Origin: Alphaproteobacteria bacterium
GTDB taxonomy: Bacteria > Pseudomonadota > Alphaproteobacteria > Micropepsales > Micropepsaceae
Reading direction: 5' to 3'
Length of the DNA stretch: 64,000 nucleotides
Assembly: GCA_947467345.1 (NCBI GenBank)
Contig: CANIHD010000007.1
Location: 62,001 to 126,000, forward strand
In this document: piece by piece, positions 24,194 to 53,328 of the stretch
Layout of the letters: each line of letters begins with the position of its first letter
How positions within the stretch are numbered: the stretch's first letter is position 1
Program-made: the position numbers and the translations under genes
The notes under the pieces: generated by a model
Told to the model about the DNA's origin: nothing
Databases searched by the model: none
The model's input: only the letters and a program-made list of their open reading frames with translations

Positions 24194-24200
24194 CGCCGTT

Positions 24201-25502: not shown

Positions 25503-25589
25503 CTTGCAGTCACCCATCGACCCTCATTATGTCGCCCCCGACAACGCTCCGGCAATGCGTTCTCACCTATATAGTCGCGCCGCGTCTCG

Positions 25590-25910: not shown

Positions 25911-25972
25911 AGTTCTTGGCCTCGCGTGTGTGACAAATTGGTGGCCATAAATGGCCCTATCTTGAATCGAAT

Positions 25973-27775: not shown

Positions 27776-27866
27776 GCGCCACCGTGCGAGTCTGACAGCT
27801 TCAGCCTAGCATTTGCGTGCGCCGGATGCCGTGTGTTTTTGGCTGCGTGATTTTGGCCTGCGGCGG

Positions 27867-29105: not shown

Positions 29106-29132
29106 TCTGCCGCCGCCCCCCGCGGTGCTGTG

Positions 29133-30119: not shown

Positions 30120-30290
30120 GTTTCCTGGGTCCCCTGGGTATTTTTCCGATTACAGACGGATTGGCGCGCCGGAGCAAGCACCTAGCGGCTGAAAAGTGCT
30201 GGGCCTGGCCCCCGGCGTTTTCGTTTGTGTCCGGCTTCAATGTTCGCTTCAATGCTGGCCGATTTTCACTCTCCAAGGTAAGATTTGCCC

Positions 30291-35514: not shown

Positions 35515-37599
35515 ATGGACGTCCTCACAGCAGCCAGTGACGCGTTCTTCATTATTATAGAACCGTCACGCATGATGTTTTTGCTGCTCGGCGTCGGTAT
35601 TGGGCTGCTGGTCGGCATTCTGCCGGGTATCAGCGGCGTCGCCGGCATGGCCCTGTTGCTGCCATTCACCTACGACATGGACCAGTACACGGCGATGGCC
35701 TTTCTCCTCGGCCTCGGTTCCGTCACTACAACCAGCGATGTTCTAACGTCGATATTGTTCGGTGTTCCCGGCCACGCCAGCGCACAGGCAACGGTGCTGG
35801 AAGGCTACCCGATGGCCAAGCGAGGTGAGGCGGGGCGAGCGCTCAGTGTCTCTTATATGGCTGCCATGGTCGGCGGCCTGATCGGAGCGGTGATTCTGGG
35901 TGTAACGATTCCGTTGTTGCGGCCGGTGATGCTCTATGTCGGCTCACCCGAATTGCTCGCGGCGGCTTTGTTCGGCATCTCGATGGTGTCGGCGCTTTCA
36001 GGCAGCGCCCCGCTACGCGGGCTTGCCGCGGCAGGCATCGGCGTTCTCTTTGCGATGGTCGGCGCCGATCCGCAGACCGGCACGCTGCGTTGGACGATGG
36101 ACACGCTCTTTTTATGGGATGGGCTGCCGCTGTTAGGCGTCGCGCTCGGCCTGTTCGCCTTGCCCGAACTTTGCGAACTCGCGATTGGACGAACCTCGGT
36201 TTCGAAGGTTCCGAACCAGGACCTGAAAGCCGGCATGATTCAGGGCGTCAAAGACGTCTTCCAGAATTGGTGGCTGGCGGTGCGCTGCAGCAGTATCGGC
36301 GCCATTCTCGGTGCCGTGCCCGGCATAGGCGCCGCGGTGATCGGATGGCTTGCCTATGCGCATGCACTGCGCACCGAGAAGGGCGCATCCAAAACATTCG
36401 GCAAAGGCGACGTGCGCGGCCTGGTTGCATCGGAATCGTCCAACAACGCGAAAGAGGGTGGGCATCTCATTCCGACCATCGCGTTCGGCGTGCCGTCCGG
36501 CGCGTCGATGGCGATTCTGCTCGGCGCGTTTCTGATTCACGGCCTGGTACCCGGGCCGGAAATGCTGACGCGCAATCTCGACGTGACCTACGCGATGGTG
36601 TGGAGCGTCGTGCTGGCGAATATTCTCGGCTGCGCCGCATGCTACGCCTTCAGCGGCTACTTCGCGAAATTGACGCTCCTTCGCTACACGCTGATCCTGC
36701 CGTCGGTTCTGGTCATTGTTTATATCGGCGCTTACCAAGACTCTCGCGATTGGGGCGATTTCTACACGCTGCTCGCCTTCGGCGTTCTTGGCTGGATCAT
36801 GAAGCAGCTGCGTTGGCCGCGTCCGCCGCTCATTCTCGGCTTCGTGCTCGGCGAGGTTATCGAGCGCTATATGTTCATTTCCATTGGGCGTTACGGTTGG
36901 GATTGGCTCAACCCGATGACGCATCCGATCGTCACGATATTGCTGGTCATGGCAATTGTCGGCTTTGCGCGCGCGTTCATGTCCAATGTTCGCGCCGAGG
37001 GTGGCGCCAGGACTATGATGGGTGGCTTCGGGGCGCCGCATTTCGCCAAGGCGGATATTTTCCCCGCGGCGCTGATCGTGCTGCTCGTGATCATGCTAGT
37101 GCAGGCGATGCCCTGGGCATTCGGCGCCAAGATTGTGCCTTTGTTTATCGGCGGTATTACACTTTTCGCTTTGGTGCTCAGCCTCACGGCGCAAGTGTTC
37201 AAGAAGCCGAAAGTGGCAAGGGTTTTGACCGCGCGGCAATTGTCCGGCGAGGACCCCGAACCCGAAGAGGAGATGGACGAGCGCATCCACATGGATATCG
37301 CGGTCGATCATGGATCTATTCCGAAACGCGAAGTCATTAGGCGTGCCGTCATTTTCCTCGGCTGGATCGTCTCCTTCATGGCTTCGATCGGGCTGATCGG
37401 ATTCCTGCCCAGCGTGCCGCTCTTTGTGATCGGCTACATGAAGATCGAAGGCCAGGAGCGCTGGAAGCTTTCCATCATCATGGGCACGGTGCTGCTCGTT
37501 TTCGTTTGGCTGGTATTCCACCAAATATTGGCGGTGACCTGGCCAGGTTCGTATCTGGGCGATTTGATTCCGGCAGCGAAAATTATCCCCTCGGTGTGA
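35515..37599 (+). CDS. Fused TctA-TctB tripartite tricarboxylate transporter permease
   Basis: A 694-residue membrane protein. Residues ~1-505 match the large TctA permease: GVGIGLLVGILPGISGVAGMALLLP, FGVPGHASAQATVLEGYPMAKRGE and GVPSGASMAILLGAFLIHG. Residues ~518-685 carry five more hydrophobic segments that resemble the small TctB permease (FPAALIVLLVIMLVQAM to FHQILAVTW). TctA alone is about 500 residues, so both membrane parts appear fused. Together with the binding protein 161 bp downstream it forms a complete TTT importer, a secondary ion-driven system for carboxylates such as citrate, tartrate, terephthalate or glutarate. The ligand is unknown. Confidence 0.88.
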   Translation: MDVLTAASDAFFIIIEPSRMMFLLLGVGIGLLVGILPGISGVAGMALLLPFTYDMDQYTAMAFLLGLGSVTTTSDVLTSILFGVPGHASAQATVLEGYPMAKRGEAGRALSVSYMAAMVGGLIGAVILGVTIPLLRPVMLYVGSPELLAAALFGISMVSALSGSAPLRGLAAAGIGVLFAMVGADPQTGTLRWTMDTLFLWDGLPLLGVALGLFALPELCELAIGRTSVSKVPNQDLKAGMIQGVKDVFQNWWLAVRCSSIGAILGAVPGIGAAVIGWLAYAHALRTEKGASKTFGKGDVRGLVASESSNNAKEGGHLIPTIAFGVPSGASMAILLGAFLIHGLVPGPEMLTRNLDVTYAMVWSVVLANILGCAACYAFSGYFAKLTLLRYTLILPSVLVIVYIGAYQDSRDWGDFYTLLAFGVLGWIMKQLRWPRPPLILGFVLGEVIERYMFISIGRYGWDWLNPMTHPIVTILLVMAIVGFARAFMSNVRAEGGARTMMGGFGAPHFAKADIFPAALIVLLVIMLVQAMPWAFGAKIVPLFIGGITLFALVLSLTAQVFKKPKVARVLTARQLSGEDPEPEEEMDERIHMDIAVDHGSIPKREVIRRAVIFLGWIVSFMASIGLIGFLPSVPLFVIGYMKIEGQERWKLSIIMGTVLLVFVWLVFHQILAVTWPGSYLGDLIPAAKIIPSV

Positions 37600-37608
37600 T
37601 GGGAGTGG

Positions 37609-37640
37609 AAAGGCCGGACGATTAAATCCCGGCCTTTTCT
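37609..37640 (+). terminator. Candidate rho-independent terminator after the TTT permease
   Basis: A perfect 9-bp stem, aaaggccgg paired with ccggccttt, with an 11-base loop, is followed by a T-rich stretch. It lies 10 bp after the permease stop and before the binding-protein gene, so it may attenuate read-through and give the binding protein its own promoter. Confidence 0.6.
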
Positions 37641-37760
37641 TAGATTGCGGGGAAGTCCTGGTTTTCCCCGCCGGAACAAGGTGTTGGATGCGCTGGATTT
37701 GGCGTTTGGTCGCGGTATAGTGCCGAAAAACCACACGCCGGGATGGAAGGAATAGACGCC

Positions 37761-38792
37761 GTGACCGTTGGATCGTTCGTCCGCACGCTGGCCCTGATGC
37801 TCGTGGCCTTACTGGCCGGCGCACCAGCGCAAGCTCAGCCCAGCGTCGAGCAGTTTTATAAGGGCAAGGTCGTCTCGCTCTATATCGGGTTCTCCGTCGG
37901 TGGTGGCTACGACGTCTATGGCCGCATCGTTTCGCGCTATCTCGGCCGGCATATTCCAGGGCATCCCACCGTGGTGCCCATCAATATGGAAGGCGCCGGC
38001 AGCCTGAAAATGGCGAACTGGCTTTATAATGTGGCGCCGCGCGACGGCACCGCGATCGGCACGTTCAGCCGCGGCGTTCCCTTCGAGCCGTTGATCGGCA
38101 ATGCCGCATCGGCGCGTTTCGACCCCACGAAGTTCACTTGGATCGGCAGCACCACCAACGAAGTCAGCGTCTGCGTTACCTGGGAGCGCACCGGCATCAC
38201 CAAATTCGATGAGCTCTATAACAAGGAGTTGATCGTTGGTGGCACCGGCTCGGGCGCTGACGCCGACGTGTTCCCCAAGATCATCGGCGCCGTTCTTGGT
38301 TCCAAATTTCGCCTAGTCAGCGGCTATCCCGGCGGCAACGATATCGAGTTCGCGATGGAACGCGGCGAAGTCGACGGCCGCTGCGGCTGGTCGTGGTCGA
38401 GTATCGAATCCCAGAAGCAGCAATGGCTGAAGGACGGCACGGTAAAGGTGCTGCTGCAGCTGGCGCTGAAAAAGCATCCGAGCCTGCCCGACGTTCCGCT
38501 GATTATGGACCTCGCCCGCAACGAAGAAGAGCGGCAGATTTTCCGTCTCATCTTTGTGCGCGGCGCGTTGGGGCGCCCCTATATGGCGCCGCCGGGAATT
38601 CCGGCCGACCGCGCGGCCGCTCTGCGCACAGCGTTTGACGAGATGGTTAAAGATCCCGCCTTCCTTGCGGAAGCGAAACGTAGCCGGCTCGAAATTACGC
38701 CGATCTCGGGAGTCGAGTTGCAGGACCTTCTGAAAGTCGTCTACCAAACACCGCCCGATATCGTCGCCAAGACGCGCGCCTATCTGAAATAG
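37761..38792 (+). CDS. TctC/Bug-family periplasmic substrate-binding protein
   Basis: A 343-residue binding protein for the adjacent permease. The GTG at 37761 is chosen because AAGGA lies 9 bp upstream and the signal peptide VRTLALMLVALLAGAPAQAQ then starts directly; ATG 37743 would add six residues. It is co-linear over its full length with the Bug protein at 5737-6774, including ERTGITKFDEL, AMERGEVDGRCGW and PADRAAALRTAFDE. These are a specific lineage of TTT receptors with a conserved Cys near the domain hinge. Bug proteins bind carboxylates through water-mediated contacts to two loops. Confidence 0.9.
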   Translation: MTVGSFVRTLALMLVALLAGAPAQAQPSVEQFYKGKVVSLYIGFSVGGGYDVYGRIVSRYLGRHIPGHPTVVPINMEGAGSLKMANWLYNVAPRDGTAIGTFSRGVPFEPLIGNAASARFDPTKFTWIGSTTNEVSVCVTWERTGITKFDELYNKELIVGGTGSGADADVFPKIIGAVLGSKFRLVSGYPGGNDIEFAMERGEVDGRCGWSWSSIESQKQQWLKDGTVKVLLQLALKKHPSLPDVPLIMDLARNEEERQIFRLIFVRGALGRPYMAPPGIPADRAAALRTAFDEMVKDPAFLAEAKRSRLEITPISGVELQDLLKVVYQTPPDIVAKTRAYLK

Positions 38793-38891
38793 CGTTTCAA
38801 CGGCGAGCAGGCATGTTGCTGCGAACCGCAGCGTTTCGCGGCGCAACGCCGATCAATGTCCGAATGCCAATTGCCACCAGGAAGGTACTCA

Positions 38892-40652
38892 ATGTCCGAC
38901 GCGCCCAAGACTTATAAACGCCAATGGCAATCCGACATCATGGTCGATCAGGTGAAGCGCTACGGCTTCCAATACATCACCATGAATCCGGGCGCGAGTT
39001 TTCGGGGCCTGCATGACTCGCTGATCAATTACGGCGGCAACAATCCCCCGATGCTGGTCTGCCAGCACGAAGAGATCGCGGTGCAAATCGCGCATGGCTA
39101 TGCCAAGGCGACGTTCGGCCGGCCGATGTGCGTGATCCTGCACAATCTTGTCGGACTGCTGCACGCCACCATGGCGATCTATTACACCTTCATCGACCGC
39201 GCGCCCGTGTTCATCATCGGTGCCACCGGCCCGATGGACGAAGGCAAGCGCCGCCCGCACATCGACTGGACGCACACTGCCTTGGTGCAAGGCGAAGCAA
39301 TCCGCAATTACACCAAATGGGATTATCAGCCTTACTCGATCGACGGCGTGCCTGACGCTTTTGCGCGCGCCTATTCCGCCATGATGACCGAGCCGCATGG
39401 GCCGGTTTATATCTGCCTTGACGCCGACATGCAGGAGCAGCCGCTCACCAAGGAAATTCCGCCGCTGCCGGAGCAATCGGTCGCCGTGCCGTCGCGCACC
39501 ATGCCGGATCCCGCCGCGCTCGAAGCCATTGCAGACCGCCTGGTGAAGGCTCAGCAGCCGCTTCTTCTGGCGCAGTTCGCCGGCCGCAACAAAGACGGCT
39601 TCGACAATATGGTGAAGCTGGCGGAAGCCACCGGCGCGGGCGCATGGGATTCCAACGCGGCGTTGAACTTCCCCAATCAACATCCGCTCTGCGTGACCTT
39701 CGACAAAGGCTATTTGAAAGAAACCGATCTCGTGCTCGGCATCGACGTGCGCGATTGGGAAAAGCAGACGCGCGAATACAAGATCACCGAACGCGACGTG
39801 CGTCCCGGCACGCCGGACCATTGCGAATGGGCCGAAATCGGCTTCGGCGAAATCGGCATGAGCAAATGGTCGATGGATTACGGCCGCTGGCAGCCGTGCA
39901 GCGTTCGCGCGTTGGGCGATCCGTCGCTCGCTATGCCGGAATTGCTGCGCATGGTGAACCAGCGCCTCGAAGGTAATGCAGCGGCGAAAGAACGCATCGC
40001 CAAACGCAAAATCGCGACGGGCAAACGCCACGACGCGCAATGGGCGAAGTTCGATGCAGACTCCCGCATGAATTGGGATTCTAATCCCATCTCGGTGCCG
40101 CGTCTCGCGCATGAAATCTGGGATGTGATCAAGGACGAAGACTGGGTGCTGACGGCGAACACGCTGAAGCACTGGTGCCGCAAGATTTGGAATTTCGACA
40201 AGCCTTATCGCCACCCTGGCGCCGATATCGGCACCTCAACGCAGATCGGCATTTCGCTCGGCGTCGGATTGGCGAACAAAGGCACCGGCCGCCTTGTGGT
40301 CGATATTCAGCCCGACGGCGATCTGATGTTCGATGCGGGCGCGCTGTGGGTCGCGGCCAAGCACAAAATCCCGATGCTGTTCGTGATGTACAACAACCGC
40401 GCTTATTACAACGACTGGGACCACCAGATTCATCTGGCGCACGAACGCAAGACCGACGAGAAGCTGGCGCATATCGGCATGGATATTTTCGGACCGGAAC
40501 CCGATTTCGGCGCGCTTGCGCGCTCGATGGGCGTGTGGGGCGAAGGTCCCATAACCGATCCGAAGGACGTCCGTCCGGCGCTGCTCCGCGCTATCGAGCA
40601 GGTCAAAGCAGGCCGTCCGGCGCTGGTCGATACCGTCACGACGCATCGCTGA
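38892..40652 (+). CDS. Thiamine-diphosphate-dependent enzyme, paralogue 1
   Basis: A 586-residue protein with the three-domain layout of the acetolactate synthase/decarboxylase superfamily. The N-terminal pyrimidine-binding domain has the conserved Glu in QHEEIAVQIAHGYAK. The central domain covers about 200-330. The C-terminal diphosphate-binding domain has PDGDLMFDAGALWVAAKH and a final MYNNRAYYN, where the usual GDG is PDGD. The ATG at 38892 follows AGGAAGG. Its catalytic specificity is unknown. It starts a unit with a beta-hydroxyacid dehydrogenase (35-bp gap), a cupin and a second ThDP paralogue, which points to 2-oxo-acid decarboxylation or carboligation. Confidence 0.88.
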   Translation: MSDAPKTYKRQWQSDIMVDQVKRYGFQYITMNPGASFRGLHDSLINYGGNNPPMLVCQHEEIAVQIAHGYAKATFGRPMCVILHNLVGLLHATMAIYYTFIDRAPVFIIGATGPMDEGKRRPHIDWTHTALVQGEAIRNYTKWDYQPYSIDGVPDAFARAYSAMMTEPHGPVYICLDADMQEQPLTKEIPPLPEQSVAVPSRTMPDPAALEAIADRLVKAQQPLLLAQFAGRNKDGFDNMVKLAEATGAGAWDSNAALNFPNQHPLCVTFDKGYLKETDLVLGIDVRDWEKQTREYKITERDVRPGTPDHCEWAEIGFGEIGMSKWSMDYGRWQPCSVRALGDPSLAMPELLRMVNQRLEGNAAAKERIAKRKIATGKRHDAQWAKFDADSRMNWDSNPISVPRLAHEIWDVIKDEDWVLTANTLKHWCRKIWNFDKPYRHPGADIGTSTQIGISLGVGLANKGTGRLVVDIQPDGDLMFDAGALWVAAKHKIPMLFVMYNNRAYYNDWDHQIHLAHERKTDEKLAHIGMDIFGPEPDFGALARSMGVWGEGPITDPKDVRPALLRAIEQVKAGRPALVDTVTTHR

Positions 40653-40687
40653 GGCGCAATCGAGGCCGACGATCAAGGATTGACGAC

Positions 40688-41527
40688 ATGATCAAGCAGG
40701 TGGGCGTCATTGGGCTCGGCAAAATGGGACTGCCCATGGCCGGGCACATGGTGCGCAAGGGCTACGCCGTTTCCGCTTACGACATCAACGAAGTCCAAAT
40801 GTCGAAAGCTGCTGCGCTTGGCGTGAAGATTTGCAAGAGCCCCGCCGAAGTCGCCGCCAATAGCCACCTGATCATCATTGTTGTCGGCTTCGACTCCGAA
40901 GTTCTGCAAACTTTGCGGGCGGAAGACGGCATCTATGCCGGGGCGCGCACGGGCTCGATCATTGCCGTCAGCTCGACCTGCTACGCCGAAACGATGCAGA
41001 CGATTCAAGATGACGTCGAGAAGCTCGGCAAGAATTTGAAAGTTCTTGATATTCCGACCTGCCGTTCGGAACGCGCCGCGGTGGACGGCACGCTTCTGGT
41101 TCTCGGCGGCGGTGACGCGAGCGTTTTCAAGGAATGCGAGCCGGTGTTCGCGAGTTTCGCAACTGATATCGCGCTTCTCGGCGGGCTGGGCGCAGGCCAA
41201 GTCGGAAAGATGATCAACAATCTTCTGCTGTGGTCCTGCATCGCGGCCAATTTCGAGGGGCTGAAACTTGGTGCTGCCATGGGCCTCGACGAGAAAAAGC
41301 TGCGCGAGGCATTGCTGAAATCGAGCGGCCGTAATTGGGCGCTGGAAACATGGGACCAGCCACGCGCCATGCCGTGGGCGGAGAAGGATATGACCATCGT
41401 CGCGCACGAGGCGGATCGCTTCAAACTCAGCATGCCGATGTCCGGCGTCGTCAAGGAAGTGATCAAGTCGATCAAGAAGGAATGGGGCATGGCTACGCCC
41501 GTGGTTACCGGCGCCGGAAAGAAATGA
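40688..41527 (+). CDS. NAD(P)-dependent beta-hydroxyacid dehydrogenase (3-hydroxyisobutyrate dehydrogenase family)
   Basis: A 279-residue enzyme that oxidises or reduces beta-hydroxyacids such as tartronate semialdehyde, 3-hydroxyisobutyrate or 2-hydroxymethyl acids. The N-terminal Rossmann motif is VIGLGKMGLPMAGHM. Conserved blocks include the catalytic-Lys region GLGAGQVGKMINNLLLW (Lys in the GxxGxxxKxxxN motif). It is preceded by ThDP paralogue 1 and followed by the cupin gene 36 bp later. Pairing with a ThDP carboligase is seen in glyoxylate carboligase/tartronate semialdehyde reductase systems, so such a link is possible here but unproven. Confidence 0.9.
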   Translation: MIKQVGVIGLGKMGLPMAGHMVRKGYAVSAYDINEVQMSKAAALGVKICKSPAEVAANSHLIIIVVGFDSEVLQTLRAEDGIYAGARTGSIIAVSSTCYAETMQTIQDDVEKLGKNLKVLDIPTCRSERAAVDGTLLVLGGGDASVFKECEPVFASFATDIALLGGLGAGQVGKMINNLLLWSCIAANFEGLKLGAAMGLDEKKLREALLKSSGRNWALETWDQPRAMPWAEKDMTIVAHEADRFKLSMPMSGVVKEVIKSIKKEWGMATPVVTGAGKK

Positions 41528-41563
41528 ACCTACGCCGCCGGTTGAGCGATTGAGAGACGAAAC

Positions 41564-42091
41564 ATGGCGTATGATTTCGACGATTTTACCGCGGATATGA
41601 CGAGCGTCCTTGCGACCAAGGGTGTCGCTGGACTGAACGATATCGTGGCGAATTTGCAAGAACTGCTGAAGAACGCCGAGTTTGTCGCCACGACGTTTGA
41701 CGAAGACATGCCGCCCGGCAAACGCGTTTTGTTTCACGATCCGAAATCGGGCGCCTATGTGCAGGCGCATGTGCATGCCGGCAATAAAAGCGGCAAGCCG
41801 CATAGCCATGGCGCCTCATGGGCGGTCTACGGCAATGCGTTGGAAACAACCGAAATGATCGAATGGCAGCGGCTGAATCCCAACAACGAAAGCCATGCTG
41901 TCTTGAAGCCCGTGGCGCGCTATGCACTCGGATCCGGCCAGGCGCGCGCCTATGGGCAATATGTGATTCATTCGACCGCGCATCCCAAGAAGGCGTGGGT
42001 TATTCGTATAATCGGCACCAAGCTGAACGAGCTCCCGCGCTTCCACTTCAATCCTGCGACCGACATTATGTTGGACACGGTCGGGGCGTGA
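41564..42091 (+). CDS. Cupin-fold protein (cysteine dioxygenase-like)
   Basis: A 175-residue small enzyme-like protein. A cupin core is visible with HVHAGNKSGKPHSHGASWAVYG (two spaced histidines and an acidic residue further on in LETTEMIEWQ), then ARAYGQYVIHSTAH carrying a third possible metal histidine. The arrangement resembles thiol or small-acid dioxygenases, but the exact metal set was not checked structurally. Its stop overlaps the GTG start of the next gene (42088) by four bases, so the two are translationally coupled. Confidence 0.75.
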   Translation: MAYDFDDFTADMTSVLATKGVAGLNDIVANLQELLKNAEFVATTFDEDMPPGKRVLFHDPKSGAYVQAHVHAGNKSGKPHSHGASWAVYGNALETTEMIEWQRLNPNNESHAVLKPVARYALGSGQARAYGQYVIHSTAHPKKAWVIRIIGTKLNELPRFHFNPATDIMLDTVGA

Positions 42092-42732
42092 CGCTTTCTC
42101 TTCGCGCGTCCGAGCTGGTGGACGAAATATTCCAGCGTCTCGTCGTGCCGCTTTATTTTCGCACCGATATTTCAGTCGATGAACAAATTCGCCATCGCGG
42201 CAAGCCGTTGCCTTATCTCAACGTGGCAAAGTCGTTGATCAAGGAATTCGGTTTTAAGACCATCGTGGAGATTGGCTCGATGCGCGAAGCGATGGGCCAT
42301 GCGCTGACGACATTCCACGCGCCGTGCTGCAATGACGGGCATTCCACGCTGCATTTGGCGTCTACGAGCGCGGATGTATTTACCGTCGATATCAATCCGC
42401 GTTCCGCCGAGGTGCTCGCGCCTTACGCGCGCGAGTATCCCAATCTCAGCGTCGCGACCGGCGATGGTATCGCTTTTTTGCAAAACTTCGCGCGCCCGAT
42501 CGACATGCTCTATCTCGATGCTTGGGATGTCATCGCTGGCACCGACTATGCCGAGAAACATCTTGAGGCCTATCGCGCCGCGCAACCGCATCTCTCCAAG
42601 ATGTGTCTGGTGCAAATCGACGACACCGACATAAAGAACGGCGGCAAGGGGCGGCTGCTTATTCCGCAAATGATCCGCGACGATTTCGAGTTGATTACCT
42701 GGGGCCGCCAAGCGATCCTTGTGCGCGATTAG
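42088..42732 (+). CDS. Class I SAM-methyltransferase-like protein
   Basis: A 214-residue protein starting at GTG 42088, inside the stop of the cupin gene. It has a Rossmann-like fold with motif I FKTIVEIGSMREAMGH, an acidic residue in VFTVDINPRSAEVLAPYA, and the later VATGDGIAFLQNF. This fits the Methyltransf_24 class. The N-terminal ~50 residues are atypical. It is nine bases ahead of the second ThDP enzyme. Whether it still binds SAM is uncertain because motif I is EIGS rather than ExGxGxG. Confidence 0.7.
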   Translation: MTLSLRASELVDEIFQRLVVPLYFRTDISVDEQIRHRGKPLPYLNVAKSLIKEFGFKTIVEIGSMREAMGHALTTFHAPCCNDGHSTLHLASTSADVFTVDINPRSAEVLAPYAREYPNLSVATGDGIAFLQNFARPIDMLYLDAWDVIAGTDYAEKHLEAYRAAQPHLSKMCLVQIDDTDIKNGGKGRLLIPQMIRDDFELITWGRQAILVRD

Positions 42733-42741
42733 GGGAAACGC

Positions 42742-44499
42742 ATGGAATTCGACCGCATTGAAGGCGCGCCCGACAGTAAGGTTGCGTGGGGAAGCGACGT
42801 CGCGGCGCAGATGCTGCGCCGGCTCGGCATTCGCTATGTGAGCCTCAATCCCGGCGCGTCCTATCGCGGCTTGCACGATTCCTTGGTCAATCATCTCGGG
42901 AATGAGAACCCGTCCATGGTGCTGTGCCTGCATGAAGATGCGGCCGTCAGCATCGCGCATGGTTACGCGAAAGCGACCGGTGAGCCGATGGCCTGCGTGC
43001 TGCATTCCAATGTTGGCCTCATGCATGGCGCGATGGGCATCTACAACGCGTTTTGCGATCGCGCGCCGATGATTGTTCTCGGCGCTACCGGGCCGCTGGA
43101 TGCCGCAGAGCGCCGGCCTTGGATCGATTGGATTCACACATCCGCCGATCAGGCGGAGATCATTCGTAATTTCATTAAGTGGGATGACCAGCCGCTTTCC
43201 GCTGGTGCGTTGGTGGAAGCGATGAGCCGGGCCTTTCTCCTCACGCGCACCGAGCCGCCGGCGCCGGTATACATCTGCCTCGATGCGGGCTTGCAAGAAG
43301 CGTCTTTGGAAAGCGAACCCGCGTGGCCGGAGGTTTCGCGCTTGCAGCCGCCATCGCCCTCGCGCGCCGCCGCTAGCGATATTCGCAAAGCGGCGGACAT
43401 GCTCAGCAATGCCGAACGTCCGCTGCTGCTGATCGGTCGCACGGACTGGAGTGTGGAATCGTGGGATGCGCGCGTCGCGCTTGCCGAGAGACTAGGCGCC
43501 TGCGTGATGACCGATTTGAAATGCCGAGCGGCATTCCCGACCGATCATCCATCGCATGTGGCGCCGCCCGTGCCGCGCTTCACACCCGCAACACGCGACA
43601 TTCTGAATGAGGCGGATGTCGTGCTGTCGCTGGACTGGCCAGTGCCGGGCGCGGCATTCCGCGTCGGCGATACGCGTAAGCACCGTCCGACACTGATCCA
43701 TTCCAGCCTGGATCACACGCTGCACAACGGCGCGCATGCCAATTATCATGCACTCGCGGACGCCGAATTGCGCCTCTCTTCATCGGCGGATTCTACGGTT
43801 GCCGATTTGTTGGAAGCGCTTGGACCAGGCACCGCCAAGCCTTGGCGCGCGGCTCTACCGCGCAAGCAGCGCAGTGCCGATACGAACCGCATCTCCATTG
43901 CCGGGGTTGCCGCGGCGCTGCACGACGCGGTCGACGATCCGGATCGCGTTACGCTGGCTGCGCTCTGCCGTGGCTGGCCGTTCGATCTTTGGCCACTGCG
44001 CTCACCGCTTGCCTATCTTGGCAAAGATGGCGGCGGCGGCATTGGGTCCGGCCCGGGTCTTTCGGTCGGTGCAGCGCTCGCAATGCACACCCACGGGCGG
44101 CATACCATCGCCGTACTCGGCGATGGCGATTTCTGCATGGGCGCCACCGCCATTTGGAGCGCCGTTCATGCGCGCATTCCGCTTCTGGTTCTGATCAACA
44201 ACAACCGCTCCTATTACAACGATGAGTTGCATCAGGAGACGGTGGCGCGGCGGCGCAATCGCCCCGTTACTAATCGCTGGATAGGACAGAGGATCTCAAA
44301 TCCTGACCTCGATATCGCAAAATTGGCTGAGGCCCAGGGCGCGGTGGGGATCGGCCCAGTCATGCGCACCGCGGACCTCGCGGCCGCTCTGGCGCGCGGC
44401 GTCGAGGTCTTGGTTTCCGGCGGTGTCGCGGTCATCGATATCCATATCGATCCGGGTGAAGAGCGCAGCGCCGGCGAAACCATCGCCCAGCGCGCCTGA
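42742..44499 (+). CDS. Thiamine-diphosphate-dependent enzyme, paralogue 2
   Basis: A 585-residue relative of the ThDP protein at 38892. Shared blocks are SLNPGASYRGLHDSLVNHLG, LHEDAAVSIAHGYAKATGEP (conserved Glu), GATGPLDAAERRPWIDWIHT and the C-terminal LGDGDFCMGATAIWSAVHARIPLLVLINNNRSYYN. Here the canonical GDGD is intact, unlike paralogue 1. The central and N-terminal loops have diverged, so the two may act on different acids or as a hetero-oligomer. It ends 138 bp before the first MBL hydrolase gene. Confidence 0.88.
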   Translation: MEFDRIEGAPDSKVAWGSDVAAQMLRRLGIRYVSLNPGASYRGLHDSLVNHLGNENPSMVLCLHEDAAVSIAHGYAKATGEPMACVLHSNVGLMHGAMGIYNAFCDRAPMIVLGATGPLDAAERRPWIDWIHTSADQAEIIRNFIKWDDQPLSAGALVEAMSRAFLLTRTEPPAPVYICLDAGLQEASLESEPAWPEVSRLQPPSPSRAAASDIRKAADMLSNAERPLLLIGRTDWSVESWDARVALAERLGACVMTDLKCRAAFPTDHPSHVAPPVPRFTPATRDILNEADVVLSLDWPVPGAAFRVGDTRKHRPTLIHSSLDHTLHNGAHANYHALADAELRLSSSADSTVADLLEALGPGTAKPWRAALPRKQRSADTNRISIAGVAAALHDAVDDPDRVTLAALCRGWPFDLWPLRSPLAYLGKDGGGGIGSGPGLSVGAALAMHTHGRHTIAVLGDGDFCMGATAIWSAVHARIPLLVLINNNRSYYNDELHQETVARRRNRPVTNRWIGQRISNPDLDIAKLAEAQGAVGIGPVMRTADLAAALARGVEVLVSGGVAVIDIHIDPGEERSAGETIAQRA

Positions 44500-44637
44500 A
44501 TTTCCAGCGGAACACGGTTTTTGCCGGCTCGCCTTAGCGCCGGGAAGGCTTTAATGTCCGCGCCGGACACAGTTCGACCGCCGCTCCTTGCGGCGTGCAA
44601 ATCCGAGAAATTGTTCCAGGGATTCGGGAGGAATAAT

Positions 44638-45603
44638 ATGAAATCGAGAACGATGCTCGCGATCGCCGCCTTTGGCGCGACGCTTCTTTGCGCCGCCACG
44701 GCGAGCGCGGCGCAATTTGTCGGTCCCGGCCCGGATGGGCGCGAGACTCTCAGCCAGACCTATCGCGAAAGCCGGATGGACGATGAGGCCTATCAGCGCA
44801 GCGTCAAGGCCACGAAAGTGTTCGACAATCTTTGGTATGTCGGCCCCGGCTACGTGTCGGTATGGCTGTTGGAAACGTCGGCGGGTCTCATCCTGATTGA
44901 CAGCGCGCAAGAACCCTATGTCGATCACGTGCTGGAGAATATTCGCCTCTCCGGCCATGACCCCAAGGACATCAAATATATCATTCTGGCGCACGGCCAT
45001 CTCGATCATTTCGGCGGCGCCGCCCGCATTCAGGAAATTTCCGGCGCGCGCGTCGTGTTGACGGCTGAAGATTGGCCGGCGGTCGAAGCGGCGGGAACAC
45101 GTCCGGGCCGCAACGGCGCTCCGCCGCCGCGCGTTCCGAAATGCGACATGGTGATCAAAGACGGCGACACCATCACGCTCGGCGGCCAGACCGTGAAATT
45201 CTATTTCACGCCAGGCCACACCGATGGCGCATTGTCGTTCGAATATACCGTCTACGACAATGGCGTGCCGCATAAGGCGTTTTTCTCTGGCGGCTCAGGC
45301 GGCCGCGGCGGCCTTAAGGGCGCGGAACAGGCGCTGGGTAGCGCCATTCGCCTCAACCGCGATCTCGTAGGTGTCGATGTCTTCACGCCGGCGCATGCAT
45401 GGACCGGCGGCAACCAATATCCGAATGGTTCGATCTTCGAGCGTTTGGAGCGGTTAAAGGCGCGCAAGGCCGGCGAGCCGCATCCCTTCGTCGATAAGGC
45501 CTCGTTCGATACGTGGCTGAAAGCCATCAACACCAATGCGGTGGAGCTGGTCGCTGAAGAAAAGGCGAAGCTGGCGGCACAGCCGGCACCGGCCCGCCAA
45601 TAA
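44638..45603 (+). CDS. Exported metallo-beta-lactamase-fold hydrolase, copy 1
   Basis: A 321-residue protein with signal peptide TMLAIAAFGATLLCAATASAA. The zinc motif HGHLDH is complete with His119, His121, Asp123 and His124; later metal residues occur in TPGHTDGALS and probably in the His of TPAHAWTG. It resembles subclass B3-like enzymes and other periplasmic MBL hydrolases. GGGAGGAATAAT precedes the ATG. The substrate is unknown; a lactone, ester or beta-lactam is possible. A strong terminator follows 24 bp after the stop. It is a close paralogue of the gene at 45743. Confidence 0.88.
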   Translation: MKSRTMLAIAAFGATLLCAATASAAQFVGPGPDGRETLSQTYRESRMDDEAYQRSVKATKVFDNLWYVGPGYVSVWLLETSAGLILIDSAQEPYVDHVLENIRLSGHDPKDIKYIILAHGHLDHFGGAARIQEISGARVVLTAEDWPAVEAAGTRPGRNGAPPPRVPKCDMVIKDGDTITLGGQTVKFYFTPGHTDGALSFEYTVYDNGVPHKAFFSGGSGGRGGLKGAEQALGSAIRLNRDLVGVDVFTPAHAWTGGNQYPNGSIFERLERLKARKAGEPHPFVDKASFDTWLKAINTNAVELVAEEKAKLAAQPAPARQ

Positions 45604-45627
45604 ATCTGCATACACGCATTTATGAAG

Positions 45628-45660
45628 GGCGGCCGGCGCAATCCGGCCGCCTTTTTCTTT
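45628..45660 (+). terminator. Rho-independent terminator between the two MBL genes
   Basis: A perfect 9-bp GC-rich stem, ggcggccgg (45628-45636) paired with ccggccgcc (45643-45651), with a 6-base loop is followed directly by a T-rich tail (tttttcttt). It ends the transcript after MBL copy 1 and divides the long co-oriented run. Confidence 0.88.
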
Positions 45661-45742
45661 GTGCGCGGGTTCTCCGGCTTCGCGCTGCCATGGGCTTCAG
45701 GTTAGAATTTCTGCAACCACAGATAAAAACTCGGGGAGCAAG

Positions 45743-46672
45743 ATGAAACACATAGTCCGCATGGCGCTTGTGGCGCTCGCGATTCCGGCGGTGAATTTTG
45801 CCCTGGTGAACCCCGCTGAAGCTGCCGCGCAAGAGACGCTGAGTCAAAGCTATCGGGAAAGCCGACGCGACGACGTTGCCTATCAGAAAATCGAGCCGAT
45901 CAAGGCGTTCGACAATTTATACTATGTCGCGCCGGGCTTCGTATCCGTGTGGCTTCTCGTGACATCAGAAGGACTTATCCTGATCGACAGCGCGCAAGAG
46001 CCTTATGTCGATCACGTCATCGACAATATTCGCAAAGCCGGGTTCGATCCCAAGAACATCAAATACATCATGATCACGCATGGCCACCTCGATCATTTCG
46101 GCGGTGCTGCGCGCATTCAGGAATTGTCGGGCGCGCGCGTGATGGCGGTTGCCGAAGACTGGGATTTGATCGAGCAGGCGGGTTCACGCCCAGGTCGCAA
46201 TGGTGCGCCGGCGCCGCGCGTTCCCAAGCGCGACACGGTGGTGAAGGAGGGTGATTTTCTGACCCTCGGAAACACATCGTTGAAATTGCATCAGACGCCG
46301 GGTCACACGCCGGGCGTGATGTCCGCGGAGTTCACGGTGTTCGAGAATGGCATTCCCTACAAAGCCTTCCTGCATGGCGGGGCTGGAGCGCGTGACGGGC
46401 TGGCCGGCGCGCAGCAGGCGGTGGCGACCGCGGCCCGTGTGGCCAACATCGTCGACATCGAAGTGGGCGTCATGGTGCATAGCTGGATGGAGACGAACAC
46501 CTATCCCAATGGCAGCATTTTCGAGCGGGCCGAGCGGCTGAAGAACCGTAAGCCGGGCGAGGAAAATCCCTTTGTTGATCCGAGGTCGTGGGTGAGGTGG
46601 CGCAACGCCGCCAGCATCAATGCCGCCAAAACCTTGGCCGCTGAACAGGCCAAGGCGGCAGCCCCAAAATGA
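45743..46672 (+). CDS. Exported metallo-beta-lactamase-fold hydrolase, copy 2
   Basis: A 309-residue paralogue of the preceding gene with signal peptide MALVALAIPAVNFALVNPAEA. The zinc motif HGHLDH has His113, His115, Asp117 and His118, and TPGHTPGVMS follows. Shared segments with copy 1 include LSQSYRESRRDD, LILIDSAQEPYVDHVIDNIR and PGRNGAPAPRVPK. The two diverge mainly in the C-terminal third. GGGGAGCAAG supports the ATG at 45743. Tandem duplication with later specialisation is the simplest explanation. Confidence 0.88.
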   Translation: MKHIVRMALVALAIPAVNFALVNPAEAAAQETLSQSYRESRRDDVAYQKIEPIKAFDNLYYVAPGFVSVWLLVTSEGLILIDSAQEPYVDHVIDNIRKAGFDPKNIKYIMITHGHLDHFGGAARIQELSGARVMAVAEDWDLIEQAGSRPGRNGAPAPRVPKRDTVVKEGDFLTLGNTSLKLHQTPGHTPGVMSAEFTVFENGIPYKAFLHGGAGARDGLAGAQQAVATAARVANIVDIEVGVMVHSWMETNTYPNGSIFERAERLKNRKPGEENPFVDPRSWVRWRNAASINAAKTLAAEQAKAAAPK

Positions 46673-46715
46673 AAAGACCGCCCGGGGAATAGATATGCGG
46701 TGGTGCGCCATATTT

Positions 46716-46877
46716 CCCTCTCCCCTTGTGGGAGAGGGTGCCGAGGAGCGCGAGCTCCGAGGCGGGTGAGGGGAAGGGTTCAACTCTCGCGCGCTATAGG
46801 TCTGCCAAGAATTTCTTACCCCTCACCCTGCTAGCGTCCTTCGGCCGCTAGTCTCCCTCTCCCACAAGGGGAGAGGG
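46716..46877. mobile_element. 162-bp MITE-like element with 23-bp perfect inverted repeats
   Basis: The ends (46716-46738 and 46855-46877) are perfect 23-bp inverted repeats, each itself nearly palindromic (ccctctcccc...gggagaggg type). Inside are further nested repeats: gggtgagggg (46764-46773) with cccctcaccc (46819-46828), gaggagcgcgagctccgag, and ctagcg/cgctag. It carries no coding sequence, so it would be a non-autonomous, hairpin-forming element or REP-like palindrome. Such CCCTCTCC/GGAGAGGG palindromes are frequent in alphaproteobacterial genomes. No second copy is in this window and no convincing target-site duplication is visible. Confidence 0.85.
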
Positions 46878-47006
46878 AATGTTCAAGTGGCATTGCCATC
46901 GGATGCCGTGCTTGACAGGAGGCAGGCGGCGCCTGACCTTCGGGCAGGATTGGGAGAGCGCCCACGAGAGGCGCCAACGATATAAGAAACGGGAAAGGGC
47001 CTTCGT

Positions 47007-47813
47007 ATGAGCTTGGAATCGAAATGGGACCGCCGCGAAATCTTGAAAGCAGGTGCCGCGCTCGGCGCCGCCGTGCCGCTAGCGATGTCTTCACTTGCCG
47101 CCGAGGCGGCCCAAGGTCCGGGAGGGGCTGCTTTGGTGCTTTCTGTGGAAATTGTTTCGCTTCCTATCGTGGGCAGCACGCAGCGTTTCCCGGTGCGGCG
47201 CGTCTATTGCGTCGGCCGCAATTACCTCGAGCATATTCGCGAGCTGAACAATGACGAGCGTGAGCCGCCATTCTTTTTCGCCAAACACCGCGACATGGTT
47301 GTCCAGAACGGTAGCAATGTTTCGTATCCGACGCTGACCAAAGATTATCAGCACGAAATCGAACTGGTCGTCGCGATGAAATCGGGCGGTCAGAATATTC
47401 CGCGCGAGCGCGCGCTCGAGCACGTCTACGGCTATGGCGTGGGTCTCGATATGACCCGACGCGATTTGCAGACCGCGTCGCGCCAGAAGGAGCAGCCGTG
47501 GGAGATCGGTAAATCCTTCGAGCAATCGGCGCCATGCTCCGCGATCACCCCGGTGGAACGCTCCGGCCATTTGACGGCTGGTAAGATCCAGCTCGTCGTG
47601 AACGGCAAGATGCGCCAGGACGGCGATCTGGGGCAGATGATCTGGGATGTGCCCGAGATCATCATGCATTTGTCGAAGCAGGTTGGGCTGGCAGCCGGCG
47701 ATCTCATCTATACCGGAACACCGGCAGGCGTGGGCGCGGTGGTGGCGGGCGACAAATTGGTCGGCAATATTGCCGGGCTCGGCGAACTCAGCATCGGCAT
47801 CGTTGCCGCCTAA
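47007..47813 (+). CDS. FAA-hydrolase-fold protein with Tat leader, copy 1
   Basis: A 268-residue protein of the fumarylacetoacetate hydrolase (FAA) family, enzymes that hydrolyse or decarboxylate acylpyruvate-like acids using Mg. The fold is recognised from VYCVGRNYLEHIRE, a metal-type glutamate stretch in YQHEIELVVAMKSGG, and the final GDLIYTGTPAGVG. The N-terminus DRREILKAGAALGAAVPLAMS looks like a twin-arginine leader. This is unusual because FAA enzymes normally work in the cytosol. It overlaps the next gene by one base (TAATG). Confidence 0.85.
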   Translation: MSLESKWDRREILKAGAALGAAVPLAMSSLAAEAAQGPGGAALVLSVEIVSLPIVGSTQRFPVRRVYCVGRNYLEHIRELNNDEREPPFFFAKHRDMVVQNGSNVSYPTLTKDYQHEIELVVAMKSGGQNIPRERALEHVYGYGVGLDMTRRDLQTASRQKEQPWEIGKSFEQSAPCSAITPVERSGHLTAGKIQLVVNGKMRQDGDLGQMIWDVPEIIMHLSKQVGLAAGDLIYTGTPAGVGAVVAGDKLVGNIAGLGELSIGIVAA

Positions 47814-48820
47814 TGGAGACCGATCGCCGGGAGTTTTTGAAAACCGGCGCGGCCGGAATGGCGGCGGTGTCCGCGGTTGCTGTTGCGCCGTGCGCGGCGT
47901 CGGCGCAAGTCGCAGCCTTCGATTTCGAAATGCCGCGCAACATGACGCTGCTGAATATGCGCGGCGCGGCGGGGCCACGCCTCGGCGTTAAAACAACGCG
48001 CGGCATTCTGGACGTCGCGGTCGCTGCCGCGATGTATAATCTTCCGGCACCGGTCGATACCGACGATCTTATCCAGAATGGTATGGGCGGACTTCTCACG
48101 CGGCTTGTGGCCGCCGCCGCCAACGGGTCAACCATTCTCTATTTGAACGAAGCGGGCGTACAGCATGCGCCGCTTCTGACCCGGCCCGAGAAAATCATCA
48201 TGATGGGTTTCAATTATCGCCGGCACGCGGCGGAAACGAACACGCCCATTCCGGCCAATCCAATCTTCTTCAACAAATATAACAACGCCCTCAACCACCA
48301 CGAGGGTACGATCAAATTGCCGGTCTCCGTCGCCAAGAATTTCGATTATGAGGTCGAGCTGGTGGTGATTTTCGGCCGCCAATGCCGCGACGTATCGGAG
48401 GCCGACGCGCTCGATTATGTCGCGGGCTACTGCACGGGGAACGATTTTTCCGCGCGCGATCTGCAAACTCTGACATCGCAATTCATGATCGGGAAAACCC
48501 ATGACGGGTTCGCACCGCTAGGGCCTTATCTCGTCACCAGCGATCTTGTCGGCGATCCCAACAATCTGAAGCTCGAGTGCCGCGTCAACGGCGAACAGCG
48601 GCAGGATTGGAATACCAACGACATGATTTTCAATTGCCGCCAGATGATCAGCTTCGCTTCGAAGATGATGACCATAAAACCTGGCGACATACTTTTCACC
48701 GGAACACCGCATGGCGTGATTTTCGGCAAGCCGCCGGCGCAACAGGTTTGGCTCAAGCCCGGCGATCGTATCGCATGCAGCCTCGAGAAACTCGGCGAGC
48801 TGCGCTTCGATCTGGTGTGA
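47813..48820 (+). CDS. FAA-hydrolase-fold protein with Tat leader, copy 2
   Basis: A 335-residue relative of copy 1, again with a twin-arginine leader (DRREFLKTGAAGMAAVSAVAV). The FAA domain is recognised in IIMMGFNYRRHAAE, in FDYEVELVVIFGRQCRD with the metal-type glutamate pair, and in GDILFTGTPHGVI. It is about 65 residues longer than copy 1, mainly before the catalytic core, where ~100 residues of small-domain sequence precede the active site. The two are coupled by a one-base overlap and likely encode subunits or successive enzymes of one step. Confidence 0.85.
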   Translation: METDRREFLKTGAAGMAAVSAVAVAPCAASAQVAAFDFEMPRNMTLLNMRGAAGPRLGVKTTRGILDVAVAAAMYNLPAPVDTDDLIQNGMGGLLTRLVAAAANGSTILYLNEAGVQHAPLLTRPEKIIMMGFNYRRHAAETNTPIPANPIFFNKYNNALNHHEGTIKLPVSVAKNFDYEVELVVIFGRQCRDVSEADALDYVAGYCTGNDFSARDLQTLTSQFMIGKTHDGFAPLGPYLVTSDLVGDPNNLKLECRVNGEQRQDWNTNDMIFNCRQMISFASKMMTIKPGDILFTGTPHGVIFGKPPAQQVWLKPGDRIACSLEKLGELRFDLV

Positions 48821-48827
48821 GAAAAAT

Positions 48828-49571
48828 TTGAGCCTGAACCCGCAAGCTGCGCCTCCCGATTCTGAACCGCCGAATTCGCGTACGGGATTTTATCTTTTCC
48901 TCGGTGCTCTAGCTGTGCTGGCTGCCGTTGTTTGGCTATTAGCATCCGCGTTTCCGGACCGCGTGGACGAAACCGACGAAAAGCTCAATCTGCTTTATCC
49001 AGTCCTCGTTTTGACGCTTGTGTCGTCCGGCCTGATAGCGATGCGCCGTGTCCGAATGGGCGAGCTGGCGCGCAATCTTGCAATTTGGATCGGCATCGCT
49101 CTCGTGGTGGCGGTGGGTTTCGCCTATCAGGATGAATTGACGAGTGTGGCGACGCGCCTGCGCGCCGAATTGATCCCGGGCTATGCTGTCGAAGACGCCG
49201 CCGGTGAACTGACCATTGCCGAGAGCCCGGATGGGTATTTCTATGCCATTGCCACTGTGAACGGCACGCCCGTTACGTTTCTGATCGATACGGGTGCCAG
49301 CGATATTGTCCTCAGCCCCGGCGACGCCGCGCGCCTTGGGATCGCGTCGGAAGATCTCGAATTTTCGCGTGTGGTCGAAACCGCAAACGGCATGGCGCAG
49401 GCGGCGCGGGCTAGGGTGGCGAATTTCACCCTGGGGCCTATCCAGTTGAGAGATGTCGAAGTGTCAGTCAATCAGGCGACGATGAGCACGTCTCTGCTCG
49501 GCATGGCGTTTATGCGCAATTTGGCATCGTTCGAGATTCGCGGCCGAAATTTGATATTGCGCCCGCTCTAA
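48828..49571 (+). CDS. Membrane-anchored retropepsin-like aspartic protease (TIGR02281-like)
   Basis: A 247-residue protein. Three hydrophobic segments lie in the N-terminal half (for example FYLFLGALAVLAAVVWLLAS), followed by a retropepsin-like clan AA domain from about residue 125. The domain has the active-site motif FLIDTGASDIVLS and the flap-like FTLGPIQLRDVEV, ending with the second conserved region SLLGMAFM. Family members act as dimers in the periplasm with unknown substrates. It begins with TTG seven bases after the second FAA gene and is likely in the same transcript. Confidence 0.8.
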   Translation: MSLNPQAAPPDSEPPNSRTGFYLFLGALAVLAAVVWLLASAFPDRVDETDEKLNLLYPVLVLTLVSSGLIAMRRVRMGELARNLAIWIGIALVVAVGFAYQDELTSVATRLRAELIPGYAVEDAAGELTIAESPDGYFYAIATVNGTPVTFLIDTGASDIVLSPGDAARLGIASEDLEFSRVVETANGMAQAARARVANFTLGPIQLRDVEVSVNQATMSTSLLGMAFMRNLASFEIRGRNLILRPL

Positions 49572-53177: not shown

Positions 53178-53328
53178 GATTCTTCCTCCCCTGAATTTTG
53201 CGGCAGCATAGGTGTTCGGGCAGCGCGAGGCCAGATCGCGGTGCGTTGATCTAGGCGACCCATTCCAGCCTGGACAGGCGAGCGGCGCGGGGACATGTTT
53301 GCAAAACGAACGAACAATCGGGGTTGTC

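What the first reader, a model, noticed from the sequence alone, without database searches (positions are those of the whole stretch)
35515..49571. Candidate uncharacterised degradation pathway built around a fused TTT transporter
A co-oriented run joins a TctA-TctB fusion, a TctC-type receptor, two related ThDP enzymes, a beta-hydroxyacid dehydrogenase, a cupin, a methyltransferase-like protein, two exported MBL hydrolases, two FAA-fold proteins with Tat leaders and a retropepsin. Several joins overlap by 1-4 bases (42088-42091, 47813), so parts are translationally coupled. Seen: gene order, overlaps and motifs. Known: these folds act in decarboxylation, carboligation, C-C cleavage and carboxylate uptake. 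Inferred: one pathway for a carboxylated or aromatic-derived substrate. I do not know of a described system with this exact set. The terminator at 45628 and the MITE at 46716 break it into at least two transcripts.
Basis: partly seen in the sequence, partly recalled or inferred. Interest (0 to 1): 0.75.

Follow-up and report, generated by a model that had tools for sequence, protein, structure and literature searches.

The report
Conserved carboxylate uptake and decarboxylation module
A bacterial gene set that probably imports an unknown carboxylic acid (likely aromatic-like) and removes carbon dioxide from it with two thiamine-dependent enzymes is real and recurs in distant bacteria, but only the left two-thirds of the reported run belongs to it.

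Summary
The reported genes exist, but the run is not one unit. The core, 35515-44499 (fused TctA-TctB, TctC-type receptor, ThDP enzyme 1, beta-hydroxyacid-dehydrogenase-family protein, small cupin, ThDP enzyme 2), keeps its order in a same-genus genome (57-74% identity). There it continues to the left with an EutA-like protein, MFS, amidohydrolase and OCD that the window also carries (22688-31367). Close relatives of ThDP enzyme 1 in alpha- and gammaproteobacteria lie near TctC in 24 of 45 loci, near this dehydrogenase family in 16, near (bi)cupins in about 18. The methyltransferase, two MBLs, two FAA proteins and retropepsin have no such linkage: absent from the relative's operon, and FAA only twice, weakly, in 45 loci. 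A terminator and a repeat element separate most of them. Best reading: uptake of a carboxylate, oxidation to a 2-oxoacid, and ThDP decarboxylation to an aldehyde: mandelate-like in logic, not a benzoylformate decarboxylase by membership. In relatives the dehydrogenase is replaced by FMN-dependent 2-hydroxyacid oxidases, and aromatic-ring genes lie nearby. Substrate unknown. Unexplained: the EutA-like gene sits next to a gentisate-dioxygenase-like cupin in 14 of 16 places, and this genome has no EutB. New variant of a known kind.

The parts
22688..24193 (+). EutA-like ASKHA protein, ATP-site motifs intact; syntenic outlier of the module
   Evidence: Pfam EutA 395 bits; 74% to the sister's gene; no EutB in genome; motifs at residues 32, 167, 278
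27867..29105 (-). MFS transporter, conserved in synteny
   Evidence: (60% to sister)
29133..30119 (-). Amidohydro_2 family protein
   Evidence: (81% to sister)
30285..31367 (+). Ornithine cyclodeaminase/mu-crystallin family protein
   Evidence: (79% to sister); linked to TctAB and ThDP enzyme 1 in other families
35515..37599 (+). Fused TctA-TctB transporter subunit (core)
   Evidence: 68% to sister
37609..37643 (+). Terminator-like hairpin after TctAB; may split the core transcript
   Evidence: sequence and fold; not listed by the scan because its loop is longer than the scan allows
37743..38792 (+). TctC-type solute receptor (core)
   Evidence: 68% to sister; 47% to an L042 protein that hits Pfam TctC; no Pfam hit itself
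38892..40652 (+). ThDP enzyme 1 (TPP1), BFDC-like fold, ThDP Glu and BFDC His70 equivalent invariant (core)
40688..41527 (+). HIBADH-family NAD(P)-dependent dehydrogenase (core); catalytic Lys/Asn invariant, usual carboxylate-binding SGG motif changed
41564..42091 (+). Small cupin, possible 3-His metal site H80/H82/H136 (core)
   Evidence: model pLDDT 60
42088..42732 (+). Methyltransferase-like protein; inside the run here but absent between cupin and TPP2 in the sister: not core
42742..44499 (+). ThDP enzyme 2 (TPP2), a separate clade (core)
   Evidence: 70% to sister
44638..45603 (+). Exported MBL-fold protein 1 (not part of the module)
45624..45655 (+). Intrinsic terminator
45740..46672 (+). 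Exported MBL-fold protein 2, 61% to MBL1 (not part of the module)
46716..46877 (.). MITE-like palindrome with 23-bp terminal inverted repeats
47007..47813 (+). Tat-leader FAA-fold protein 1 (not part of the module)
47813..48820 (+). Tat-leader FAA-fold protein 2 (not part of the module)
48828..49571 (+). Membrane-anchored retropepsin-fold protein (not part of the module)

Best explanation
35515-44499 is an uncharacterised catabolic module. A fused TctAB with its TctC-type receptor imports an organic carboxylate. The HIBADH-family enzyme oxidises its hydroxyl group, most simply a 2-hydroxyacid to a 2-oxoacid. One or both ThDP enzymes then decarboxylate the 2-oxoacid to an aldehyde, which enzymes encoded elsewhere oxidise. 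The small cupin is a metal-dependent accessory oxygenase or isomerase. The logic is that of the mandelate pathway with TTT uptake; the substrate is probably aromatic or another bulky carboxylate. Shown: gene content, synteny and co-occurrence. Inferred: every reaction, its direction, the substrate, and whether TPP1 and TPP2 act in sequence or on two substrates. The MBL, FAA, retropepsin and methyltransferase genes are neighbours, not members.
For: Synteny with 57-81% identity in same-genus genome G004. Same partner families in distant bacteria: Phyllobacterium TctA-TctB-TctC-ThDP-HIBADH-bicupin-EutA, a Litoricola MAG, Nitratireductor, Marinobacter. Tally over 45 loci with TPP1 >=53%: TctC 24, HIBADH 16, TctA 13, bicupin 11, split cupins 9, EutA 9, TPP2 7, FMN_dh 7. 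Presence profile over 384 other alphaproteobacterial genomes: TPP1 in 7, all 7 with the fused TctAB, 6 with EutA-like, 6 with OCD. TPP1 and TPP2 clades lie side by side again in L042 and L098/L099/L102/L103. In the clade nearest the window the directly adjacent dehydrogenase is HIBADH (window, L036, L042) or FMN-dependent 2-hydroxyacid dehydrogenase (L043, L066), with a D-2-hydroxyacid dehydrogenase several kb away in L037-L041. TPP2 relatives sit with aldehyde dehydrogenase, alpha-hydroxyacid oxidase or 2-hydroxyacid dehydrogenase, Rieske proteins and pcaHG. Fold: best matches include benzoylformate decarboxylases, Z 33-34; ThDP Glu59 and His83, at the place of BFDC His70, invariant.
Against: ThDP folds are generic: yeast acetohydroxyacid synthase, Gcl and 2-hydroxyacyl-CoA lyase score about as well. 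BFDC Ser26 is Ala in TPP1, and Glu28 is not kept. The HIBADH family usually oxidises beta-hydroxyacids, and its carboxylate-binding motif is altered here. No aldehyde dehydrogenase lies in the run, and no intradiol dioxygenase in the genome. A hairpin after TctAB may uncouple it. Presence statistics rest on only three independent families besides the window's (family-level p 2e-3 to 7e-5). The tally pools homologues at 30-70% identity.
Confidence: 0.45

Rival explanations
1. Carboligation pathway of the glyoxylate carboligase / tartronate semialdehyde reductase type: the ThDP enzyme condenses a 2-oxoacid with an aldehyde or second 2-oxoacid to a 2-hydroxy-3-oxoacid, which the HIBADH-family enzyme reduces.
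For: ThDP plus HIBADH-family enzyme is the classical Gcl-GlxR pairing (established knowledge); the HIBADH protein scores 118-126 bits to tartronate semialdehyde reductase models, below cut-off; a Gcl structure matches at Z 33.0.
Against: TPP1 keeps the ThDP glutamate that E. coli Gcl lacks (own knowledge); glyoxylate carboligase model only 56 bits against a cut-off of 791; no hydroxypyruvate isomerase or glycerate kinase seen in the run; in relatives the adjacent dehydrogenase is replaced by FMN 2-hydroxyacid oxidases, which would not reduce a semialdehyde.
Confidence: 0.15
2. ThDP C-C hydrolase or lyase pathway: the ThDP enzymes cleave a cyclic 1,2-dione or 2-hydroxyketone (as cyclohexane-1,2-dione hydrolase, IolD or benzaldehyde lyase do) after ring modification by cupin and dehydrogenase.
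For: The TPP1 profile hits cyclohexane-1,2-dione hydrolase (3e-24) as strongly as benzoylformate decarboxylase; ring-active genes (Rieske, class II aldolase, gentisate-dioxygenase-like bicupins) recur nearby.
Against: Closest fold matches are decarboxylases, though tied within noise; 2-hydroxyacid oxidases as neighbours fit a 2-oxoacid better.
Confidence: 0.12
3. No single pathway: two ThDP enzymes with separate substrates, each with its own receptor or dehydrogenase, gathered because both use the same transporter or regulator.
For: TPP1 and TPP2 are distinct clades, each usually found without the other; TTT receptors are often modular; the hairpin after TctAB.
Against: The two clades are adjacent in at least three separate lineages; gene order conserved with the sister genome.
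Confidence: 0.18
4. One reading: one pathway from TctAB to the retropepsin, including MBL, FAA and methyltransferase.
For: Same strand; small gaps; methyltransferase/cupin and FAA1/FAA2 overlaps.
Against: Sister operon ends at TPP2, with unrelated genes next; its FAA2 homologue is on another contig; MBL, retropepsin and methyltransferase in 0 of 45 TPP1 loci and FAA in 2; terminator and MITE between.
Confidence: 0.05

Closest known systems
Mandelate pathway, (S)-mandelate dehydrogenase plus benzoylformate decarboxylase MdlC (Pseudomonas putida)
   Same: ThDP fold, ThDP Glu and His70 equivalent; 2-hydroxyacid oxidases next to TPP1/TPP2 relatives; aldehyde dehydrogenase next to TPP2 relatives
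   Different: Below the benzoylformate decarboxylase model cut-off (132 and 171 against 493 bits), Ser26/Glu28 not kept, HIBADH-family enzyme in place of an FMN enzyme in the window, TTT uptake, cupin, two ThDP clades
Tph/Tpi terephthalate uptake (TphC, Comamonas; PMC8556258)
   Same: TTT receptor next to catabolic genes for an aromatic carboxylate
   Different: No Rieske/Tph enzymes in the run; receptor too divergent to hit Pfam TctC; fused TctAB
Sulfolactate TTT system SlcHFG (listed in PMC5812351), with 2-hydroxyacid dehydrogenase and ThDP sulfopyruvate decarboxylase (the enzymes from own knowledge)
   Same: Same logic: TTT import, 2-hydroxyacid oxidation, ThDP decarboxylation
   Different: Different ThDP family (two-subunit ComDE), no cupin, HIBADH or EutA-like partner
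Glyoxylate carboligase / tartronate semialdehyde reductase
   Same: ThDP enzyme plus HIBADH-family dehydrogenase in one operon
   Different: ThDP glutamate present; scores far below the Gcl model; partners differ
Fused TctAB (Paraburkholderia caribensis; PMC5812351)
   Same: Single-chain TctA-TctB
   Different: None established; the fusion is rare but known

Membership tests
Benzoylformate decarboxylase (MdlC) | Whole-protein score above NCBIfam PRK07092 cut-off (493 bits) | tested here: not met
   132 bits (TPP1) and 171 bits (TPP2)
Benzoylformate decarboxylase (MdlC) | ThDP Glu47 and active-site His70 | tested here: met
   Glu59 and His83 invariant in 18 TPP1 relatives
Benzoylformate decarboxylase (MdlC) | Ser26 and Glu28 of the BFDC active site | tested here: not met
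   Ala34 and no acid at the aligned positions in TPP1 (residue roles from PMC6028569)
Benzoylformate decarboxylase (MdlC) | Decarboxylation of benzoylformate | not testable with these tools
   needs enzyme assay
Tripartite tricarboxylate transporter (TTT) | TctA and TctB membrane domains | tested here: met
   Pfam TctA 406 bits, TctB 31 bits on one chain
Tripartite tricarboxylate transporter (TTT) | TctC solute-binding protein | tested here: inconclusive
   No Pfam hit for the window protein, but relatives at 42-47% identity hit TctC above cut-off
3-hydroxyisobutyrate dehydrogenase family (beta-hydroxyacid dehydrogenases) | NAD_binding_2 plus NAD_binding_11 domains, catalytic Lys and Asn | tested here: met
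3-hydroxyisobutyrate dehydrogenase / tartronate semialdehyde reductase as named enzymes | NCBIfam equivalog cut-offs | tested here: not met
   140 against 292 and 126 against 397 bits
Glyoxylate carboligase | NCBIfam PRK11269 cut-off (791 bits); no ThDP Glu | tested here: not met
   56 bits; Glu59 present
Cysteine/thiol dioxygenase cupins | 3-His metal-site cupin fold | tested here: inconclusive
   Top Foldseek hits are thiol dioxygenases (E about 1e-9) but model pLDDT 60, and other cupins tie under VIA-align
EutA, reactivase of ethanolamine ammonia-lyase | EutA domain with intact ATP-site motifs | tested here: met
   Pfam EutA 395 bits; motifs
EutA, reactivase of ethanolamine ammonia-lyase | Its client EutB in the same genome | tested here: not met
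   No EutB in this 96%-complete genome; the E. coli control rings

The most novel reading that the evidence does not exclude
The module, with a widespread EutA-like protein and gentisate-dioxygenase-like bicupins, is a new oxidative carboxylate pathway in which an EutA-type ATP-driven reactivase has been re-purposed to service a non-B12 client, most likely the metal-dependent cupin next to it.
Probability: 0.15. Interest if true: 0.75.

Novelty: new variant of a known kind. Interest (0 to 1): 0.42.

Why it matters
TctC-type receptors and uncharacterised ThDP enzymes are very abundant in environmental genomes, and few have known substrates. A compact set with receptor, permease, dehydrogenase and two ThDP clades, found in lake, soil and marine bacteria, is a good handle for finding the substrate of a whole enzyme branch. 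The recurrent EutA-cupin pairing would, if functional, extend reactivating chaperones beyond B12 enzymes.

Tried and rejected
(1) One pathway over the full 35515-49571: rejected for the right third and the methyltransferase. (2) The FMN 2-hydroxyacid oxidase plus second TctC at 4514-6774 as the missing oxidase of the module: not kept as evidence. The oxidase is conserved in all seven genomes of the genus, including one without close TPP1 (G005), next to a TetR gene and not next to TctC, and it is only 33-36% identical to the oxidases that adjoin TPP1/TPP2 relatives. (3) Gcl-type carboligase: TPP1 keeps the ThDP Glu and misses the model cut-off. (4) A named substrate (vanillylmandelate, hydroxymandelate, tropate, phthalates): suggestive neighbours in Marinobacter and Phaeobacter, nothing decisive; this genome has no intradiol dioxygenase. 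(5) Literature for the gene set: no paper held the combined terms; the arylmalonate decarboxylase survey (PMC4996985) and SAR202 pangenome paper (PMC6946804) describe TTT or mandelate-type genes but not this set. (7) Early greedy ORF calls put some genes on the wrong strand; replaced by composition-aware calls and tblastn.
Full report
WHERE IT IS. The window is contig C7, 62001-126000, of a 2.49 Mb, 96%-complete alphaproteobacterial MAG; same-class relatives were handled as numbered genomes. One same-genus genome, G004, has a contig of the same length as the lake-Erken MAG record CAIOYY010000106.1 and the matching syntenic run, so the two are taken as the same genome.

WHAT THE SEQUENCE SHOWS. 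Each listed gene was translated and scanned. The TctA-TctB fusion, both ThDP enzymes, the HIBADH-family protein, two MBL-fold, two FAA-fold and one retropepsin-fold protein are clear. The TctC-type receptor, the cupin and the methyltransferase are weaker by family search: no Pfam hit for the first two, and 23.3 bits against a cut-off of 26.3 for the third. The overlaps at 42088-42091 and 47813, the terminator at 45624-45655 and the palindromic repeat at 46716-46877 are real. A further terminator-like hairpin follows TctAB.

WHAT BELONGS TOGETHER. In G004 the order EutA-like, MFS, amidohydrolase, OCD, TctAB, TctC, TPP1, HIBADH, cupin, TPP2 is kept at 57-81% identity, in the same relative orientation, and the run stops after TPP2. 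In that genome HIBADH overlaps the end of TPP1 by 4 bases (L036: 11758-11761). The methyltransferase is missing between cupin and TPP2 there, the sister's FAA2 homologue is on another contig, and no close MBL1 homologue was found in it. So the core is 35515-44499, with conserved outliers from 22688.

RECURRENCE ELSEWHERE. TPP1 relatives at 46-74% identity were fetched from the GTDB species genomes; one record is labelled a Desulfobacterales MAG and several are Chloroflexi, and I do not rest claims on those, since MAG contigs can be misassigned. Gene neighbourhoods were read by blastp, tblastn and Pfam. Among 45 loci with TPP1 at 53% or more (they include paralogous and closely related loci), a TctC lies within 10 kb in 24, HIBADH in 16, TctA in 13, bicupin in 11, split cupins in 9, EutA in 9, FMN_dh in 7, TPP2 in 7; MBL, retropepsin and the methyltransferase in none, FAA in 2. 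Phyllobacterium zundukense carries TctA-TctB-TctC-ThDP-HIBADH-bicupin-EutA in one annotated run. A second, paralogous operon of the window's genus has split cupins, TctC, TctA, TctB, ThDP (54-59%) and HIBADH. In 384 other alphaproteobacterial genomes TPP1 occurs in 7; all 7 have the fused TctAB, 6 the EutA-like and 6 the OCD protein (genome-level p about 1e-10 to 1e-11). The genomes are related, and the family-level p is only 2e-3 to 7e-5. Of 72,556 plasmid records, only four carry TPP1 at 56% or more, and the same four are the only ones with the EutA-like protein at 57% or more; all four are Rhizobiaceae or Phyllobacteriaceae.

THE ENZYMES. TPP1 and TPP2 are about 36% identical and fall in two old clades, which lie next to each other in the window and sister, in Nitratireductor L042, and in arrays in L098, L099, L102 and L103. 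The TPP1 model (pLDDT 82) matches a putative benzoylformate decarboxylase from M. smegmatis at Z 34.0 (3.1 A over 499 residues); P. putida and 4-hydroxybenzoylformate decarboxylases, yeast and hybrid AHAS and a Gcl tie within about one Z unit. The ThDP glutamate and the His70 equivalent are invariant; Ser26 and Glu28 are not kept (residue roles from PMC6028569). Neither enzyme passes any NCBIfam cut-off among the rows shown. The HIBADH-family protein keeps the catalytic Lys and Asn but has a changed substrate-carboxylate motif, here and in the TPP1-linked relatives. The cupin model is poor (pLDDT 60); thiol-dioxygenase-type cupins lead in Foldseek.

HOW IT MOST LIKELY WORKS. In the clade nearest the window, the dehydrogenase directly next to TPP1 is HIBADH or an FMN-dependent 2-hydroxyacid dehydrogenase (L043, L066); L037-L041 carry a D-2-hydroxyacid dehydrogenase several kilobases away. 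TPP2 relatives adjoin aldehyde dehydrogenase and 2-hydroxyacid oxidase or dehydrogenase, with Rieske and pca genes nearby. The simplest common logic is 2-hydroxyacid to 2-oxoacid to aldehyde plus CO2 after TTT import. Shown: gene content, synteny, co-occurrence. Inferred: every reaction, the direction of the dehydrogenase, the cupin's role and the substrate. Aromatic chemistry is suggested by neighbours in Marinobacter (Rieske, class II aldolase, pca genes), Litoricola (phenol-hydroxylase-type monooxygenase) and Phaeobacter, but this genome lacks an intradiol dioxygenase. TTT uptake of an aromatic carboxylate has precedent in TphC (PMC8556258).

AN UNEXPLAINED PARTNER. The EutA-like protein has intact ATP-site motifs, lies within 0.5 kb of a gentisate-dioxygenase-like bicupin or split cupin in 14 of 16 occurrences outside the window (the sister counted among the 16, as one of the two exceptions), and the window genome has three such genes and no EutB. 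In the window and sister it has no bicupin beside it, so its tie to this operon is synteny alone. A client other than ethanolamine ammonia-lyase is likely; which one is unknown.

VERDICT. It is a new arrangement of known families, with known pathways of the same logic (mandelate; TTT-fed sulfolactate). Fused TctAB is rare but described (PMC5812351). Interest is moderate; it would rise if the EutA-cupin link were shown to be functional.

Noticed in passing
window 22688-24193; L083, L089, L105, L108, L110, L111 and others: EutA-like ASKHA genes sit within 0.5 kb of gentisate-dioxygenase-like (bi)cupins in 14 of 16 places outside the window; the window genome has three EutA-like genes and no EutB.
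   Followed up: partly
window 4514-6774: Tat-leader FMN-dependent 2-hydroxyacid oxidase followed by a second TctC-type receptor, 60% identical to the operon's receptor; the oxidase is genus-wide, its pairing with TctC is not.
   Followed up: yes
window 46716-46877; 18 repeat ends genome-wide: MITE-like palindrome with perfect 23-bp terminal inverted repeats, folding very stably (z -8.0); repeat ends occur on seven contigs.
   Followed up: partly
L074: 8119-15312 (own genome, contig C1): Three further ThDP enzymes in tandem (36-38% to TPP1), the first with a Tat-type leader, which is odd for a ThDP enzyme.
   Followed up: no
L098, L099, L102, L103: Arrays of two TPP1-clade and two TPP2-clade ThDP genes, with FMN-dependent 2-hydroxyacid dehydrogenases nearby, in one other alphaproteobacterial family.
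   Followed up: partly
window 60658-63998 (-): Three tandem related secreted proteins of about 378 aa with a GDTLVVYT-type motif; similar shorter ones at 33622-35201 and 53212-54225. No Pfam hit for the one tested (33622-34416).
   Followed up: no
L073 contig C7, about 25 kb left of the window: Paralogous operon: split cupins, TctC, two TctA-TctB sets (one TctA apparently broken in two reading frames), ThDP enzyme, HIBADH.
   Followed up: partly
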